Shown: positions 16,812 through 58,888 of the stretch, piece after piece
Numbering within the stretch: position 1 is the stretch's first letter
Layout: each line of letters begins with the position of its first letter
IMG/VR virus record: IMGVR_UViG_3300010885_053065
Location: 1 to 64,000 of that record
Source: a virus
DNA: 64,000 nt
Reading direction: 5' to 3' (one strand)
Position numbers and translations under genes: made by a program
Notes under the pieces: generated by a model
Told to the model about the DNA's origin: nothing
The model's input: only the letters and a program-made list of their open reading frames with translations
The model's database searches: none

Positions 16812-16871
16812 TTGTTTGTAATCAAATAACCGTCAAATGTATCAGGATATCTCATGATTTAAAGGTTTTGA

Positions 16872-16895
16872 ATTACCTAACACATTATTTGTCAT
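16872..16895 (+). repeat. Degenerate CRISPR-repeat fragment R0
   Basis: 20 of 24 positions match the first 24 positions of the 36-bp repeat of the adjacent array, in the same orientation, after which the match stops. It overlaps the stop codon of the DUF433 gene, so that gene lies between repeat-derived sequences. Confidence 0.65.
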
Positions 16896-17118
16896 CCAAA
16901 GTATGTTCTTTTATAGCATTGTCTATCTCTTGTTTATTTTCTTGATAATACTTCCAAGCGTCGGTTAGATCTTCAGGAGAAATATCAGAACATTCTGTTA
17001 GCATTTCTGAATCGCTCATACCGTCCATATGAAGAGAGACTAAACGCCAAACAGTAAATCTAGTATTTTTAATTACTGCTCGTCCACCGCATACATCCTT
17101 CACTTTTTCTATTCTCAT
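16885..17118 (-). CDS. DUF433-family protein (VapB-like antitoxin fold)
   Basis: 77 aa with the DUF433 pattern: CGGRAVIKNTRFTVWRLVSLHMDGMSDSEML ... DLTDAWKYY. Members act as antitoxins or small DNA-binding regulators. No toxin gene adjoins it here. The first codons and upstream region are duplicated at 19250-19305, so the CRISPR/cas12 module appears inserted beside its 5' end, while its 3' end overlaps a decayed CRISPR repeat. It may be cargo of the module or the original resident gene. Confidence 0.75.
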   Translation of the reverse strand: MRIEKVKDVCGGRAVIKNTRFTVWRLVSLHMDGMSDSEMLTECSDISPEDLTDAWKYYQENKQEIDNAIKEHTLDDK

Positions 17119-17166
17119 TTTTGGTTTTATTGTAGGAAAATTAGGATTAATTGATTAGTTACAATA
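17111..17166. repeat. 56-bp direct repeat, left copy
   Basis: Matches 19250-19305 at 54 of 56 positions. It contains the start codon and upstream region of the DUF433 gene. The two copies bracket the CRISPR array, tracr region and cas12-like gene. Confidence 0.85.
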
Positions 17167-17192: not shown

Positions 17193-17512
17193 GTCACCTA
17201 ACACATCACTTGTCATAGCTTTGGTAACATTATTATTAAGGCTTACTTGGTTGACGGTCTTAAACCGTCACCTAACACATCACTTGTCATAGCTTTGGTA
17301 ACACTTTCGCGTAAGACTTACCAGATCTTGTCACCTAACACATCACTTGTCATAGCTTTGGTAACTGCTTTGAGAGGATGCCTTGCTGGTTGAGGTGGTC
17401 AGCTAGTCACCTAACACATCACTTGCCATAGCTTTGGTAACTAACTTAGCCTTATCTACTAACTCGAAAAATCTAGGTCACCTAACACATCACTTGTCAT
17501 AGCTTTGGTAAC
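17193..17512 (+). CRISPR. CRISPR array: five 36-bp repeats, four spacers
   Basis: Repeats at 17193-17228, 17267-17302, 17330-17365, 17406-17441 and 17477-17512 begin GTCACCTAACACATC and end GCTTTGGTAAC. They are identical except for one T-to-C change in repeat 4. Spacers are unique and 38, 27, 40 and 35 nt long, a wider range than in most arrays. The repeat ends form a weak dyad (GTCACC/GGTAAC). The plus strand is the likely transcribed strand because a promoter-like site precedes repeat 1, the downstream hairpins need G-U pairs formed only by the plus-strand RNA, and the anti-repeat then lies 3' of its scaffold as in type V dual guides. No cas1/cas2 is in the window. Confidence 0.92.
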
Positions 17513-17780
17513 CCCTCCTATCCGAAGCCTTGCTATGAGCTGATTACAACACCAGTTTGCGAGGGATAGAGTTTCATTTATTAACATCCAGCAATAAAGT
17601 ATAAACAAAATGGGCGAAAACCTTGCTAGGTAATGTCGCGAGGGATTATAAAGAAACAAGAGTTAGTTACAAAAGGTATGACAAGTTTTGTGTCTTCTCG
17701 CTTTGGAATAATCCTCTACGAATAAAGGCGGTAGGAGCGACCACCTATCAAGTTAATTGACTCGATATATCTATTATAGT
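17513..17780 (+). ncRNA. Candidate tracrRNA with anti-repeat
   Basis: This 268-nt gap between the array and the cas12-like gene contains, at 17666-17693, a segment complementary to the last 28 nt of the CRISPR repeat at 24 positions. Two hairpins precede it: CCTTGC (17528) with GCGAGG (17559), and CCTTGC (17621) with GCGAGG (17638). Both stems need a U-G pair that only plus-strand RNA can form. Scaffold hairpins followed by a 3' anti-repeat is the order in tracrRNAs of type V-B and V-K systems. The ends are unknown. Confidence 0.7.
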
Positions 17781-19184
17781 TTATTCAAAAATATCAGATT
17801 TATTGATATTTTTGAAAACTTCTATTGCTGCTGTAGCTGAAGATTCAGTAGAGGATTTAGTTATCCTAACAACCTCTTTCTTTTTGCTGACAACAGGGAA
17901 TATTTCTAAACCAACTCTTTTTATATTGATTCCGGCATTAATATCTCTATCGATAAAAAGTTCTAATTCTTTATCAAAATACTCTCTAATTGAGCAATCA
18001 GTAAATACAAGCTCATCTCGATAGGAAAGTAATTGAGAAGTATATGCAGGATTAACTTTAACTACTTTAGCGTCATATTTTTGAGCAACCCATGTCAATA
18101 TCTCAACAAATTGTCCAAAAGCTGCATCTTGCCATGATTTATTTAAACCAGATTTAGATGATTGACCGTTAGGTAAATACGTTCCATCTTTATCTTGTTT
18201 GGCTTTATTTCTTTTTGTTAATCCTTTTAGATTTAAGTCTTCAACAAAGAATACTTTTTTGCCAGTTCTACACAAAGCATGAGCAATTTTATATTGAAAA
18301 TCTTTTCTTTGTCTAGCTATATGTTTATGAAGTTTAGCTTCTTTTATAGCTGCTTTTTTTCTTCGATTAGACCCTTTTTGTTTTTTAGCTTTTTCCTTAG
18401 AAATCTCAGCTAATTTATCTTGAGACTTCCTAAAAGCTTTCAATGAGTTGAGTTTTTCGCCTTCTGATGTTGCTAAATAAACATCATCTTTTAATACAGC
18501 ATCCAAGCCTATGGAATTATCCCAAGTTGGTAAAATTTCATCATCAATCTTGGTAGTAGTATGATCATCAATAATAAGCAATATATACCAACCATCTAGT
18601 TCTTTAGTGATACCAATCTGCTTAAGAATAAAACTTTCTGGTAATGGTCTATGAAGGTTAATTTTTACGTTCCCTATTTTTGGGATTCTAATTAACTTTT
18701 GTTTATTACTAATGTCCTCTTTTAACCAATTATCTTTAACGTTCTCAAAAAATAACGTTGTGTAGTCCTTACTTCCTTTGAACTTAGGTCTACCACTACG
18801 ATTGCCACTAGAATCTCCTTTAAGAAATCTTGTAAAAGCTAAATCAACTCTTTTACAAACGTTTTGCATTACAGAAGAATGTGGTTTAGCAAAATCTAGT
18901 ATTTCTCCTGAATGTTGAACAGCTACAGGAGATTTGTTTAATACAGCTATTTGTCTTTTTTGACTGTAATAATTCGGGCTATCTATCTTTGCTGATATTG
19001 AACAAGTAAGCGGACATCTATCAATTAAACAACTGTTATGACGTATGTTATTCTCTTCATACCAAGCAAAACGTTCACCAATCATTTTGTTATACCAATA
19101 TCGGCATATTCTCAACCAAATATTAAGTTCTTCTTCTTGTTCTTTTGTTTCAAATTCAATGAGGTATTTACGAGTGAGAATCAT
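17781..19184 (-). CDS. Cas12-like RuvC nuclease (TnpB-derived, compact type V effector)
   Basis: 467 aa. The RuvC active site is complete: Asp228 in SIGLDAVL, Glu315 in FFVEDLNLKG and Asp414 in DRDINAGINI. A basic helical segment separates RuvC-I and II (KKQKGSNRRKKAAIKEAKLH), as in TnpB and Cas12. Unlike canonical TnpB (the intact one here is at 26556), the CxxC...CxxC zinc ribbon is gone: only Cys397 remains and the region reads NPAYTSQLLSYRDELVFTDC. Loss of the ribbon and adjacency to a CRISPR array with an anti-repeat support a guide-dependent effector over a transposon TnpB. Its size fits the smallest Cas12 classes (V-U type; V-U2 and V-U5/K are known from cyanobacteria). It is transcribed opposite to the inferred array strand. 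PAM and activity are unknown. Confidence 0.8.
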   Translation of the reverse strand: MILTRKYLIEFETKEQEEELNIWLRICRYWYNKMIGERFAWYEENNIRHNSCLIDRCPLTCSISAKIDSPNYYSQKRQIAVLNKSPVAVQHSGEILDFAKPHSSVMQNVCKRVDLAFTRFLKGDSSGNRSGRPKFKGSKDYTTLFFENVKDNWLKEDISNKQKLIRIPKIGNVKINLHRPLPESFILKQIGITKELDGWYILLIIDDHTTTKIDDEILPTWDNSIGLDAVLKDDVYLATSEGEKLNSLKAFRKSQDKLAEISKEKAKKQKGSNRRKKAAIKEAKLHKHIARQRKDFQYKIAHALCRTGKKVFFVEDLNLKGLTKRNKAKQDKDGTYLPNGQSSKSGLNKSWQDAAFGQFVEILTWVAQKYDAKVVKVNPAYTSQLLSYRDELVFTDCSIREYFDKELELFIDRDINAGINIKRVGLEIFPVVSKKKEVVRITKSSTESSATAAIEVFKNINKSDIFE

Positions 19185-19249
19185 TGATGTTTCTGATATC
19201 TATTAAATTAAATCCTTGTCAATGCTGACACTGACTTTAATTTTACTTC

Positions 19250-19305
19250 ATTCTCATTTTTGGTTTTATTGTGGGAAAATTAGAATTAATTGATTAGTTA
19301 CAATA
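19250..19305. repeat. 56-bp direct repeat, right copy
   Basis: Second copy of 17111-17166 (54 of 56 identical), upstream of the cas12-like gene. The DUF433 start codon is preserved here but followed by a stop after four codons, so it is a decayed gene start. Confidence 0.85.
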
Positions 19306-19332
19306 GATATGAAAACTTACTAATTAGTATTT

Positions 19333-45273: not shown

Positions 45274-45960
45274 TTAATCAACATCTGATTGGTTGGATTG
45301 AGCAATATAAGAGATTAACTCAAGAAATCTACCACCACGCTTAGTAGATATCAATTGCTCTGTTGAGTGAAAATCTAATACTGAGTAGAGTTTAAATAGA
45401 TTCTGAGATTTGTAGACACCTGATAGTATCTCTGTCTTAGTGCATCCAAGAGACATTAACAGTTCAAAATAACCTAAAAACTCTATTAGCTCTTGTCTAT
45501 TTATAGTAAGTAGATTTATCTCAAAAAGTACAGGAAATATTTCTCTACTATTAGCTTCTTTAGCTAAGAATAAAATATGCTTTTGTCCAGATTCAGCTAT
45601 AGCAATAGTAAAAGGCGGTTCAGGAGGGTTAACAAGCCATTCTCTAATCTGTGGTCTTGTGGGTAAGTCGGTTACTCTATCACCTTCAATCTTAGGGTAA
45701 GACTCTTTCTCTGAAATTAACCAAGACCAACAACGACCAAATAATAGTACTTCTTTTTGACTATGTGGATTATAGTATTTAAGTCTTAGAGGGATAACGT
45801 AATGACAACGATCACATAACTTATCAGAGGTTGGAGACTTAGCTGAACTGTGAGCCGTGAAACTGTCTTTTAGTATTCCTTCTTTAGGTTTGGTGGCAGG
45901 AATTGAACCACAGAGATAGCATGAGTCTTTTATTTTAGTGTCACTAGTCACGTCACTCAC
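45274..45960 (-). CDS. csf1: Csf1-like large subunit of type IV CRISPR-Cas
   Basis: 228 aa. Two CxxC pairs, CYLC (Cys14, Cys17) and CDRC (Cys49, Cys52), frame the segment IPATKPKEGILKDSFTAHSSAK, the pattern of Csf1 (CxLCG ... F.D...A ... CxxC). The rest is alpha/beta without a nuclease motif. Csf1 is the Cas8-like subunit of type IV complexes. The start codon (GTG) lies within a CRISPR-repeat-like sequence, and a truncated copy of its 5' end is found at 47220-47297, so the N-terminus was rebuilt by recombination. It overlaps the upstream gene by 4 nt. Confidence 0.8.
   Translation of the reverse strand: MSDVTSDTKIKDSCYLCGSIPATKPKEGILKDSFTAHSSAKSPTSDKLCDRCHYVIPLRLKYYNPHSQKEVLLFGRCWSWLISEKESYPKIEGDRVTDLPTRPQIREWLVNPPEPPFTIAIAESGQKHILFLAKEANSREIFPVLFEINLLTINRQELIEFLGYFELLMSLGCTKTEILSGVYKSQNLFKLYSVLDFHSTEQLISTKRGGRFLELISYIAQSNQSDVD
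45868..45929. repeat. csf1 5'-end duplication, intact copy
   Basis: 62 bp matching 47233-47294 at 58 positions. It covers the CYLCG zinc-finger codons of csf1. Confidence 0.85.
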
Positions 45961-46046
45961 CTTGGCTTTGGTAATAGTTCTCTTGGAGAGTTGGGAGATT
46001 TGTGTGCTATGTCACTAAACACGACACTTGCCTTGGCTTTGGTAAT
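45940..46046 (+). CRISPR. Degenerate CRISPR unit: repeats D1 and D2 with a 35-nt spacer
   Basis: D1 (45940-45975) and D2 (46011-46046) match each other at 31 of 36 positions and match the array repeat at 17193 at 25 and 28 of 36, in the same plus-strand orientation. The 35-nt gap is a normal spacer length. Both repeats also lie inside coding frames: D1 carries the csf1 start and the end of the 120-aa gene, D2 its C-terminal codons. Confidence 0.7.
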
Positions 46047-46319
46047 ACTAAAATTGTGAACTGCATAAAGAGAAGTGACATCCTCAAAAATGATTTTCTC
46101 TTTAATTTTGAGATCTTCTAGGCTATCGTAATCTACAGGCTCTCCATCTTCGGTGAGCAAGAATATATCCTGAGCGCCTATTCTGAGTGCATAAACTACA
46201 TCAGGACGACTAGGCAGTGAGACGCTGTAAAGGGTATATTGTCCCATACTAATAAGGCTTAAAACAGCATCTGGGAGTTTACTGAGACGACTTTTTGGGA
46301 TGGACGAAGTGGTGATCAT
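45957..46319 (-). CDS. Hypothetical protein ending in CRISPR-repeat sequence (120 aa)
   Basis: 120 aa. The first ~90 residues form an alpha/beta domain of unknown family (YTLYSVSLPSRPDVVYALRIG). The last ~30 residues (ITKAKASVVFSDIAHKSPNSP...) are translated from the degenerate repeats D2 and D1 and their spacer. The native C-terminus was probably replaced when repeat DNA moved in. Overlaps csf1 by 4 nt. Confidence 0.5.
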   Translation of the reverse strand: MITTSSIPKSRLSKLPDAVLSLISMGQYTLYSVSLPSRPDVVYALRIGAQDIFLLTEDGEPVDYDSLEDLKIKEKIIFEDVTSLYAVHNFSITKAKASVVFSDIAHKSPNSPRELLPKPR

Positions 46320-46496
46320 GGCTCTATCCTCTCTTTATTAGCTAATCTCAAAGTTGTAACAGATTACCAACTTGTTACCAAAAGATGATGGTGGCTAAAG
46401 TGAAGTAAATGGGTATTAATGGTTAACTAAGCATTATGCTCAATTTATGGATTACATTCTACCTACAATCTAGCTCACTAAAAATATTTATTTCTG

Positions 46497-46532
46497 GTCA
46501 CTAAACGCGTCACTTACCTTGGCTTTAGCAGT
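46497..46532 (+). repeat. Degenerate CRISPR repeat D3
   Basis: 36 bp, 23 of 36 identical to the array repeat and closer to D2 (shares GTCACTAAAC and CCTTGGCTTT). Lies between two small genes. The flanking stretch 46320-46496 shows no gene. Confidence 0.6.
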
Positions 46533-46809: not shown

Positions 46810-47150
46810 TTACCTTAATAGATGATAAACTTTATTGTTACACAACAAAAAACTTTTACCTATTTTCTCCAAACCTTTATTTAATATGTTGATTGCTGCA
46901 TTTTGATCCCTATCTAAAACACATTGACAGTGTGGGCATTGATGCAGTCTTACACTTAAAAGTTTTGGCACTTTTTCACCGCAACTTGAGCAATTCTGAG
47001 AAGTGTTGTGGGGGTTAACTTCTATTACTTGAACTCCAAACTTAGAAGCTATTTCCTTTAGTCTTAAAACAAAATAACCCCATGCTGCATTAGAAATAGC
47101 TTTAGAAGGATTTTCACAGTAAATTTTTGCATAACAGGATCGGTAGAGCC
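46810..47150 (-). pseudogene. C-terminal remnant of a tnpB gene
   Basis: About 113 codons: YCENPSKAISNAAWGYFVLR ... NPHNTSQNCSSCGEK ... CPHCQCVLDRDQNAAINIL, then a stop. The zinc ribbon and last RuvC motif are kept; the RuvC-I and II parts and the start are missing. The ribbon marks it as ordinary TnpB rather than the Cas12-like type at 17781. It lies in the interval between csf1 and the csf1 5' fragment. Confidence 0.8.
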
Positions 47151-47219
47151 AAAACTTTTTTCATATGACACTCCGATAGTTTTTATTAGCGAGAAATCAA
47201 AAAGCCTAGAGTAATCTAG

Positions 47220-56604: not shown

Positions 56605-58173
56605 CTAATTTTGAATCTGTTGTAAAAATATCTCTAACTCTTCTAGCGTCAAAGAATCAACTCTTTCACTAGGGATTCCAGATAATCTAGCTACTTGGTT
56701 GTAAAGTCCTCTTAATTTATTCTCAGTAAAAGTACTAACAAGAGAATCACTATTTTCTTTTTCTTCTGCTACTGGTTTTCCCTCTTCTACCTCAAGAGGA
56801 TTATCTGTTTTAGTATCTACAGCTTTATCTAGAGCAGTCTGTGGTTTCAAGTCCTCAGCATTAGTATTTTTGTCTAGAGTGATATTCATATCAAAAATAG
56901 ATTGAGCGTAGTGACTATCTCTAGCTTCTTGACTGCTGTAAATACCGTTTCTGATATTCGCCTCATCAGCCCTTGAACTAGCTTCTCTAATGCCTGCTTC
57001 CTCTGTTGGGGTAAGGCTATATATGCTTTTCCACTCCCAAGAATAGTCGGTAGGTAGCTTCCCTTTTGTTACAGAATCTTGTGATAAGAAATATAGTTCA
57101 ATATCCTCTAAGATATTTTCTCCCCATTTTTGTTCACAGAGAGCCAGAATTGAGTTAGCTTCTGCTAGTCTTTCACTTTCTCCTGTAGCTGCTAGTCCTG
57201 CAGGGTGCTCTTGATAAAATTGTGGTTTAGTTAGTCCACTTGCACCGATCATTTCATCTTTGAGTCTATCTAGAATATCTGACACTCCTCTAAATTGTCG
57301 ACCAATTATATTAACCTCTTCAGTTTTTCTGTCTAGTGCAAAAAATCTTAAAGCTGATAGAGTTTTTTGATTTAACAGCATTCTCCTTTTAATCTCGTTC
57401 TCGCCTTGTAAGGTTCTAGTTCTATCGAACAGATTATCTATAGAGTGAGCAATTATCTCAAAGGTTTTTAGAGCTTCTCCTGAGTACCCTAGACCTGTTA
57501 GGTGACGCATTAAAGGATCTAGGAATCCGACTAACACAGAGTCTTCCCAACCACTATTTAATTTTTGGTGGTAAGGAGGTAAATAAGAACCTCTGAACCT
57601 AAGTATTCTTGATTTGTGGATTCTATATTGATTGGCTAGTAATTTATTTTGGTAGTCGTTACTATACCCACTACTAGAATAAAAAAGATAGTAATCTGGA
57701 TTAACAGAATCAATTGATATACTATAAGAATCTGGTAGTATATACCATCTATCGTAAAGCTGAGAGTATCTAACGGTTTTGATGTTTTCTCTATCGATAG
57801 GTTGATCTGGTTTCTGACCGTCATCAACTAATCGAATAGCAGTAGCCCCACCATATAGATTAGCTAATACTTGACCTTTCTCATAAATCTTTTTAAGTTT
57901 GTGTATTGCTTTGTTAGCTTGTTCTATTACTTCTGGAGAACCAGAACCTAGGGTAACTTTCCCCCAAGATCTGTGCATCATAAAGGGTAAGTACTCACAA
58001 ACTTTTCTAGCTTGCCAAAGAGACTTAAAAGCTGAGTCTAGGTAGCCTCTATTTCTATAAAACCCGTAAGCTGGATTAATAAAGTTACTTGTAATAGAAT
58101 CAGTTCCTTGTACACCTAAGCCAGTCAACTGATTTGCTACGTTAATATAACTGTCAAAATTAGATATGTCCAT
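56605..58173 (-). CDS. Portal protein (DUF1073-like)
   Basis: 522 aa. NPAYGFYRNRGYLDSAFKSLWQARKVCEYLPFMMHRSW at the N-terminus and PAGLAATGESERLAEANSILALCEQKWGENILEDIELYFLS in the middle match the DUF1073 type of phage portal. It would form the dodecameric DNA-entry ring at the head vertex. The C-terminal ~90 residues are an acidic extension and a helix. It is on the minus strand like the terminase. Confidence 0.85.
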   Translation of the reverse strand: MDISNFDSYINVANQLTGLGVQGTDSITSNFINPAYGFYRNRGYLDSAFKSLWQARKVCEYLPFMMHRSWGKVTLGSGSPEVIEQANKAIHKLKKIYEKGQVLANLYGGATAIRLVDDGQKPDQPIDRENIKTVRYSQLYDRWYILPDSYSISIDSVNPDYYLFYSSSGYSNDYQNKLLANQYRIHKSRILRFRGSYLPPYHQKLNSGWEDSVLVGFLDPLMRHLTGLGYSGEALKTFEIIAHSIDNLFDRTRTLQGENEIKRRMLLNQKTLSALRFFALDRKTEEVNIIGRQFRGVSDILDRLKDEMIGASGLTKPQFYQEHPAGLAATGESERLAEANSILALCEQKWGENILEDIELYFLSQDSVTKGKLPTDYSWEWKSIYSLTPTEEAGIREASSRADEANIRNGIYSSQEARDSHYAQSIFDMNITLDKNTNAEDLKPQTALDKAVDTKTDNPLEVEEGKPVAEEKENSDSLVSTFTENKLRGLYNQVARLSGIPSERVDSLTLEELEIFLQQIQN

Positions 58174-58204
58174 AAATACTAAATAATAATTATCTCTATT
58201 CTAA

Positions 58205-58888
58205 CTAATAATACATTTTTTTTCTAGACCTTGTTAGATTTTCGTGTGAAGTAATTAACCTTAGTTTAGCGTGTTTATCATGATATTTTTGCCAATCTTC
58301 TTTTATTTTTTTGTCTACAATTGTTCGTTTAGATTCCCCAATATGTTTAATTTCAACATCTTCTAATTTTAGATTATACTCTTGGCAAAAATTATGTAAA
58401 ATTTCAACAAAAGGAATTATATGATCTACATGCATACCAGCTATTGAATTAATTAAACTATCACTTAATTGCTGAGTCCTGAAACTAATTATTTGGTCTA
58501 ATATGGAGTATCTAAAAGCTTCTTTAATATCTTCTTTGTGTTGGAATGACTGGTCTAATCGCAAAGCTTTATTGAATGAAAAATCTTCCCAGTTTTTGTC
58601 AACCATTTTAACGTAAAAACAATTATATTTAGATCTTCCATCATTATCAATTTTTAATTCAATTTGTTCTGGAATTAATTCTTGTTTTCTTCGCAAAGCT
58701 AATGCTGCTATAAGTTTTATGTTATAAAGAGAAGATAAACTTTTATTTTTTAGAGAATTTTGACAAATTTCTTTTATTTTAGACTTGGTAATTTTTTCAC
58801 CATTAAAAAAAGTTCCATTGGTAGACACATTTAATTGTGGAACTTCTGATTTATTAATAATATAGATTTGTTGATTCTTCTTAATCAT
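58205..58888 (-). CDS. HNH endonuclease (homing-type insertion)
   Basis: ATG at 58888 is preferred: a longer frame to 58987 would overlap the divergent head gene. The product is ~227 aa. HVDHIIPFVEIL and ...HAKLRLITSHENLTRSRKK are the HNH core (H-x-D-H, later N), with a preceding basic domain. Its A+T richness exceeds that of its neighbours. An HNH gene wedged between portal and head-morphogenesis genes is typical of free-standing homing endonucleases. Confidence 0.75.
   Translation of the reverse strand: MIKKNQQIYIINKSEVPQLNVSTNGTFFNGEKITKSKIKEICQNSLKNKSLSSLYNIKLIAALALRRKQELIPEQIELKIDNDGRSKYNCFYVKMVDKNWEDFSFNKALRLDQSFQHKEDIKEAFRYSILDQIISFRTQQLSDSLINSIAGMHVDHIIPFVEILHNFCQEYNLKLEDVEIKHIGESKRTIVDKKIKEDWQKYHDKHAKLRLITSHENLTRSRKKMYY

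What the first reader, a model, noticed from the sequence alone, without database searches (positions are those of the whole stretch)
17513..17780. Anti-repeat and twin hairpins define the guide RNA strand
17666-17693 can pair with the last 28 nt of the repeat. Two upstream hairpins share the CCTTGC/GCGAGG stem, each needing a U-G pair only in plus-strand RNA. That gives the order scaffold hairpins, then anti-repeat, which matches tracrRNAs of V-B and V-K. The cas gene is read on the other strand, unlike the co-directional order of V-K loci.
Basis: partly seen in the sequence, partly recalled or inferred. Interest (0 to 1): 0.8.

Follow-up and report, generated by a model that had tools for sequence, protein, structure and literature searches.

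The report
Phage CRISPR guide RNA, strand corrected
A cyanobacterial virus carries a miniature CRISPR system built on a transposon-type nuclease (TnpB), and next to it a sequence that can pair with the CRISPR repeat, as a two-part guide RNA needs; the guide RNA most likely runs on the same strand as the nuclease gene, not on the opposite strand as first read.

Summary
The sequence features are real. 17666-17693 matches the repeat's reverse complement at 24 of 28 positions (best of 100 shuffles: 18). The twin CCTTGC/GCGAGG hairpins occur twice in the window, 0 expected, and are intact only in plus-strand RNA. The strand conclusion is probably wrong. Two other hairpins, between the anti-repeat and the effector gene, are intact only in minus-strand RNA, so that argument is symmetric. 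Minus is favoured by the only promoter-like site in the gap, the degenerate repeat at the far end of the array, and the sense-strand omegaRNA of the effector's closest relatives. A second, distant phage lineage (Aphanizomenon phage CL131 and 12 IMG/VR contigs) has the same layout. There anti-repeats follow the changed repeats, a scaffold with 10 doubly compensated pairs abuts the anti-repeat on the cas side, and arrays show cas-side polarity. The published CL131 report found no tracrRNA. Best reading: cas, then tracrRNA, then array, all on the minus strand, serving a RuvC-intact TnpB captured independently of V-U2. No expression, cleavage or target evidence exists. The window's own scaffold could not be tested for covariation, because no close relative was found.

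The parts
17781..19184 (-). 467-aa TnpB/Cas12-like effector with the RuvC triad D228, E315, D414 and no zinc-finger cysteines
   Evidence: Pfam OrfB_IS605 and Cas12f1-like_TNB; D228, E315 and D414 invariant in 28 sequences; Foldseek best E-values are TnpB-RNA complexes, LaTranC among the hits
17694..17780 (-). proposed tracrRNA scaffold (inferred), with hairpins 17747-17766 and 17727-17745
   Evidence: cas-side position as in the CL131-family scaffold; 17666-17800 folds z -1.86 on minus against +0.69 on plus, hairpins need minus-only G-U pairs
17666..17693 (-). anti-repeat, proposed 3' end of the tracrRNA; on the alternative reading it would be on the plus strand
   Evidence: 24/28 complementary to the repeat, shuffles at most 18; duplex z about -4.5
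17645..17672 (-). promoter-like site TTGTAA-16-TATAAT reading into the array; the -35 overlaps the anti-repeat end
   Evidence: only promoter-like hit between array and effector, 10/12; number of hits in the region is not above chance
17193..17512 (-). CRISPR array, 5 repeats of 36 nt and 4 spacers of 27-40 nt; minus-strand repeat GTTACCAAAGCTATGACAAGTGATGTGTTAGGTGAC
16870..16895 (-). degenerate repeat copy at the end of the array away from the effector, read as trailer relic
   Evidence: 0 mismatches to ACCTAACACATNNNTTGTCAT, expected 0.07 hits at up to 3 mismatches
17528..17565 (+). first twin hairpin; real, role unknown
17621..17644 (+). second twin hairpin; real, role unknown
17098..17166 (.). 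left copy of a ~70-bp direct repeat flanking the module
   Evidence: 90% identical to about 19235-19305
19235..19305 (.). right copy of the flanking direct repeat, upstream of the effector start

Best explanation
A cyanophage has turned an IS605-type TnpB into a single-effector CRISPR nuclease. The cas-sense (minus) transcript supplies a tracrRNA: a scaffold just downstream of the effector gene followed by the anti-repeat 17693->17666. A leader promoter at 17672->17645 drives the array 17512->17193 in the same direction. The crRNA repeat pairs with the anti-repeat, leaving a 7-8 nt handle (AGGUGAC or UAGGUGAC) before the spacer, and the duplex replaces the last, guide-adjacent stem of the ancestral omegaRNA. 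The RuvC-intact effector, loaded with this dual RNA, would cut DNA matching the spacers, probably competing phages or mobile elements. Shown: array, anti-repeat, RuvC residues, TnpB ancestry, absence of a detectable omegaRNA, and a structured, covarying cas-side scaffold in the parallel CL131 family. Inferred: the strand in this phage, the exact tracrRNA ends, derivation from the omegaRNA stem, DNA cleavage and targets.
For: Window: anti-repeat far above chance; the cas side of the gap folds better than shuffles only as minus RNA; only promoter-like site points into the array on minus; degenerate repeat at the far end; RuvC triad conserved. Ancestry: nearest proteins are up to 55% identical cyanobacterial TnpBs; a scan of the loci found no convincing CRISPR array beside these genes. 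They carry a sense-strand omegaRNA at the gene's 3' end whose final stem has 7 of 7 pairs with compensatory changes, then an 8-12 nt linker before the guide. That model finds the omegaRNA of another phage TnpB (L120, E 2e-4) but none beside the window effector. Parallel case, CL131 family, same layout: anti-repeats significant in CL131, L008 and L012 although their repeats differ. Cas-side scaffold flush with the anti-repeat: 10 pairs changed on both sides, 98.9% of cells paired, 0/500 shuffles, slid controls at most 55%. Cas ORF runs through the scaffold and anti-repeat in most members. L008 and L011 share the three spacers farthest from cas, and imperfect repeats sit at the far end in several loci. 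L118 and L119, cyanobacterial effectors grouping with CL131 (96/97, long-branch warning), have arrays downstream of cas whose repeats end TTGAAAC or CTGAAAG in the cas sense.
Against: No transcript data. No close relative of the window module, so its own scaffold is untested for covariation. Duplex energies do not settle the strand: CL131 and L012 favour plus, L008 minus, and L119, whose orientation follows from its repeat, scores better on the opposite strand. Two scaffold stems of the CL131 family have G-U evidence pointing opposite ways. The minus hairpin 17726-17746 followed by TTTATT is terminator-like and could end the cas mRNA before the anti-repeat. In the L013-L019 clade the full duplex is not significant; only a short complementary block is visible. 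Derivation from the omegaRNA stem rests on short motif resemblances noticed after the fact. Polarity in the window itself rests on one relic.
Confidence: 0.7

Rival explanations
1. One reading: a plus-strand tracrRNA with the twin hairpins as scaffold and the anti-repeat at its 3' end, array read on plus, effector gene convergent.
For: Both hairpins need a U-G pair available only in plus RNA; on plus the anti-repeat pairs right up to the spacer-side end of the repeat.
Against: No promoter-like site on plus in the gap; degenerate repeat would sit at the leader end; twin hairpins not found in any relative examined; the covarying scaffold of the CL131 family lies on the other side of the anti-repeat; minus-only hairpins exist too; TnpB omegaRNAs are sense-strand.
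Confidence: 0.15
2. Decayed locus: the anti-repeat is genuine but the module no longer works, as with the relic array at 45939-46532.
For: The same phage carries a degenerate array of the same repeat family beside a truncated TnpB; no spacer target found.
Against: Repeats at 17193-17512 are identical but for one base; intact ORF with invariant RuvC residues; anti-repeat preserved.
Confidence: 0.1
3. The array works with host CRISPR proteins and the TnpB gene is an unrelated neighbour.
For: Nearest TnpBs have no arrays beside them; phage mini-arrays that exploit host systems are known (PMC11656645).
Against: A cis anti-repeat beside a TnpB has no evident use with class 1 host systems; the same cas/anti-repeat/array layout recurs in the distant CL131 lineage.
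Confidence: 0.05

Closest known systems
Type V-U2 CRISPR-Cas of Aphanizomenon phage vB_AphaS-CL131 (PMC6293099)
   Same: Cyanophage; TnpB-like effector of about 466 aa; 36-nt repeats; cas-array topology; and, found here, an anti-repeat between them
   Different: Effectors only 27-29% identical and on separate branches; CL131 scores 526 bits to Cas12u2, the window 147, like plain TnpBs; repeats differ; the paper reported no tracrRNA
Cyanobacterial IS605-type TnpB with omegaRNA
   Same: Same protein clade (100/100), up to 55% identity; zinc-finger cysteines likewise missing in those aligned
   Different: They have a single omegaRNA and no array; the window has an array and anti-repeat and no detectable omegaRNA
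TranC (TnpB-to-Cas12 intermediates with split guide RNA; recalled from memory, the primary paper is not held; PDB 9jfq names LaTranC)
   Same: TnpB-derived effector using tracrRNA plus crRNA; fold similarity
   Different: Sequence membership not tested; this is a phage-borne cyanobacterial TnpB lineage
Types V-K and V-F (Cas12k, Cas12f), general knowledge
   Same: tracrRNA with scaffold 5' and anti-repeat 3', co-directional locus
   Different: No Tn7 genes seen beside it; RuvC intact, unlike Cas12k; low identity to Cas12f structures

Membership tests
tracrRNA-dependent class 2 CRISPR system | regular repeat-spacer array | tested here: met
   five 36-nt repeats, 4 spacers
tracrRNA-dependent class 2 CRISPR system | anti-repeat beyond chance near the effector | tested here: met
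   24/28, shuffles at most 18
tracrRNA-dependent class 2 CRISPR system | expressed, processed tracrRNA bound by the effector | not testable with these tools
   no transcript or biochemical data
tracrRNA-dependent class 2 CRISPR system | structured scaffold conserved among relatives | tested here: inconclusive
   strong in the CL131 family; no close relatives for the window's own scaffold
Type V (Cas12/TnpB) | RuvC D-E-D triad and TnpB/Cas12 fold | tested here: met
Type V-U2 | effector belongs to the Cas12u2 family above background TnpB | tested here: not met
   147 bits against 526-547 for CL131-type and 125-138 for plain TnpBs of its own clade; separate clade
Type V-K | inactivated RuvC | tested here: not met
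   triad intact
Ordinary TnpB with omegaRNA | clade omegaRNA at the gene's 3' end | tested here: not met
   covariance model finds none there, while it finds the L120 one
TranC | sequence placement within described TranC clades | not tested
   no reference set available

The most novel reading that the evidence does not exclude
The plus-strand guide RNA is real: a type V-like system whose tracrRNA and array run convergent to the effector gene, with a duplicated-hairpin scaffold unrelated to the ancestral TnpB omegaRNA.
Probability: 0.13. Interest if true: 0.65.

Novelty: new variant of a known kind. Interest (0 to 1): 0.5.

Why it matters
TnpB is thought to have become a CRISPR effector many times (about 50 inferred events, PMC12669027). 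This phage adds a lineage in which close transposon relatives with intact omegaRNAs can be set beside a CRISPR-linked member with an anti-repeat, so the change from one guide RNA to two can be tested directly. It also shows candidate tracrRNAs in the CL131 family, where the published analysis reported none, together with a conserved scaffold to test. For users of the locus the strand matters: a single guide designed on the plus strand would probably fail.

Tried and rejected
Close relatives of the window module: protein scan of viral contigs with the window effector (none), repeat search in viral contigs (none), related phages through the thymidylate synthase gene (no related array, gap not conserved). 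Duplex energy and G-U counts as a strand test: rejected because they conflict and because L119 scores better on the strand opposite to its repeat orientation. Conserved leader sequence of the CL131 family as polarity evidence: rejected, since it encodes the effector C-terminus. OmegaRNA covariance model on the window: no hit on either strand at the locus. The shared TTGCTAG/CGAGGG string in CL131 was dropped because L008 lacks it. Spacer targets: native array searched in phage records, one short chance-level hit; one spacer core in viral contigs, none; own window, none; arrays of CL131 and L019 in phage records, none but self. Rfam: no match.

Full report
Setting. The window is part of an 89.7-kb virus record. 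Its PolB is 35% identical to that of Nostoc/Anabaena phages and its nearest TnpBs are cyanobacterial, so it is probably a cyanophage. Between 17193 and 19184 lie a five-repeat CRISPR array, a 268-bp gap and a 467-aa TnpB/Cas12-like gene on the minus strand.

Observation. The anti-repeat 17666-17693 matches the reverse complement of the repeat at 24 of 28 positions; the best of 100 dinucleotide shuffles is 18. The twin CCTTGC/GCGAGG elements are real and unique in the window, and each stem is intact only in plus-strand RNA. Two further hairpins on the other side of the anti-repeat, at 17727-17745 and 17747-17766, are intact only in minus-strand RNA, and that side folds better than shuffles on minus (z -1.86) and not on plus (z +0.69). 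Each strand therefore offers hairpins upstream of the anti-repeat, and hairpins alone cannot name the strand.

What decides the strand. The anti-repeat is inverted relative to the array, so the two RNAs can pair only if both come from the same strand. In the window the one promoter-like site of the gap reads minus into the array (such hits are not above chance in number), and a degenerate repeat copy lies beyond the array's far end, as expected of a trailer.

Parallel system. Phage CL131 has a published V-U2 locus for which no tracrRNA was found and array direction was left open (PMC6293099). Twelve IMG/VR contigs carry relatives at 77-95% identity, nearly all with arrays at the same place. 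In CL131, L008 and L012 the repeats differ and the anti-repeats differ with them. In L013-L019 only a short complementary block is visible and the full duplex is not significant. On the cas side, flush with the anti-repeat, is a four-helix structure with 10 of 20 pairs changed on both sides and 98.9% of cells paired, reached by none of 500 shuffles. The effector reading frame runs through it in most members; CL131 itself has an earlier stop. L008 and L011 share the three spacers farthest from cas and mostly differ near cas, and imperfect repeats sit at the far end in several loci. The apparent leader conservation is protein coding and was not used. In two cyanobacterial loci that group with CL131, repeats end TTGAAAC or CTGAAAG in the cas sense. 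These lines give a cas-sense array and tracrRNA for that family, and by analogy for the window.

Ancestry. The window effector groups with cyanobacterial IS605-type TnpBs (100/100) and not with CL131. The 80 genome loci of that group fetched here show no convincing array beside the gene. Their sense-strand omegaRNA has a fully covarying final stem; a covariance model finds none at the window locus and finds the one of a TnpB in a related phage. I infer that the last stem was replaced by the repeat:anti-repeat duplex. Two resemblances, GAGAAG just before the anti-repeat on minus and an 8-nt linker TAGGTGAC against TAGTTCAC before the guide, fit this but were noticed after the fact; the plus-strand end scores nearly as well (5 of 8 against 6 of 8), so they are leads only.

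Function. The RuvC triad is invariant and the closest folds are TnpB, Cas12 and LaTranC complexes (model mean pLDDT 75). RNA-guided DNA cleavage is the likely activity. No spacer target was found, so the targets are unknown.

Verdict. The effector fails the V-U2 test and is an independent TnpB recruitment, a kind of event already described many times.

Noticed in passing
window 45939-46532 and 46810-47190: Relic CRISPR array of the same repeat family (copies at 45939, 46010, 46496) beside a truncated TnpB with a zinc finger on the minus strand; no anti-repeat found.
   Followed up: partly
window 17098-17166 and 19235-19305: About 70-bp direct repeats (90% identical) flank the whole CRISPR module; the left copy overlaps the start of a DUF433 gene. 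A weaker third copy lies at 58157-58209.
   Followed up: partly
window 19297-19317, minus strand: A sequence upstream of the effector resembles the anti-repeat plus TTGTAACTAA; it may be a shared promoter element.
   Followed up: no
L007:33070 and L008-L019: CL131's effector stops early; most relatives continue through the anti-repeat region to a C-terminal QLTLW/QLTIW, resembling a sliding-clamp-binding motif.
   Followed up: partly
L120:10053-11259: A phage with a 61% identical thymidylate synthase carries an ordinary TnpB with intact omegaRNA downstream of that gene, the neighbourhood of the window's module.
   Followed up: partly
L121:1-950: A related phage contig carries a 14-repeat CRISPR array with a different repeat (CTATTAGGGATTGAAA).
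   Followed up: no
L019 and L016 arrays: Several spacers share TTAGTGCCGGTG, suggesting repeated sampling of one target.
   Followed up: no
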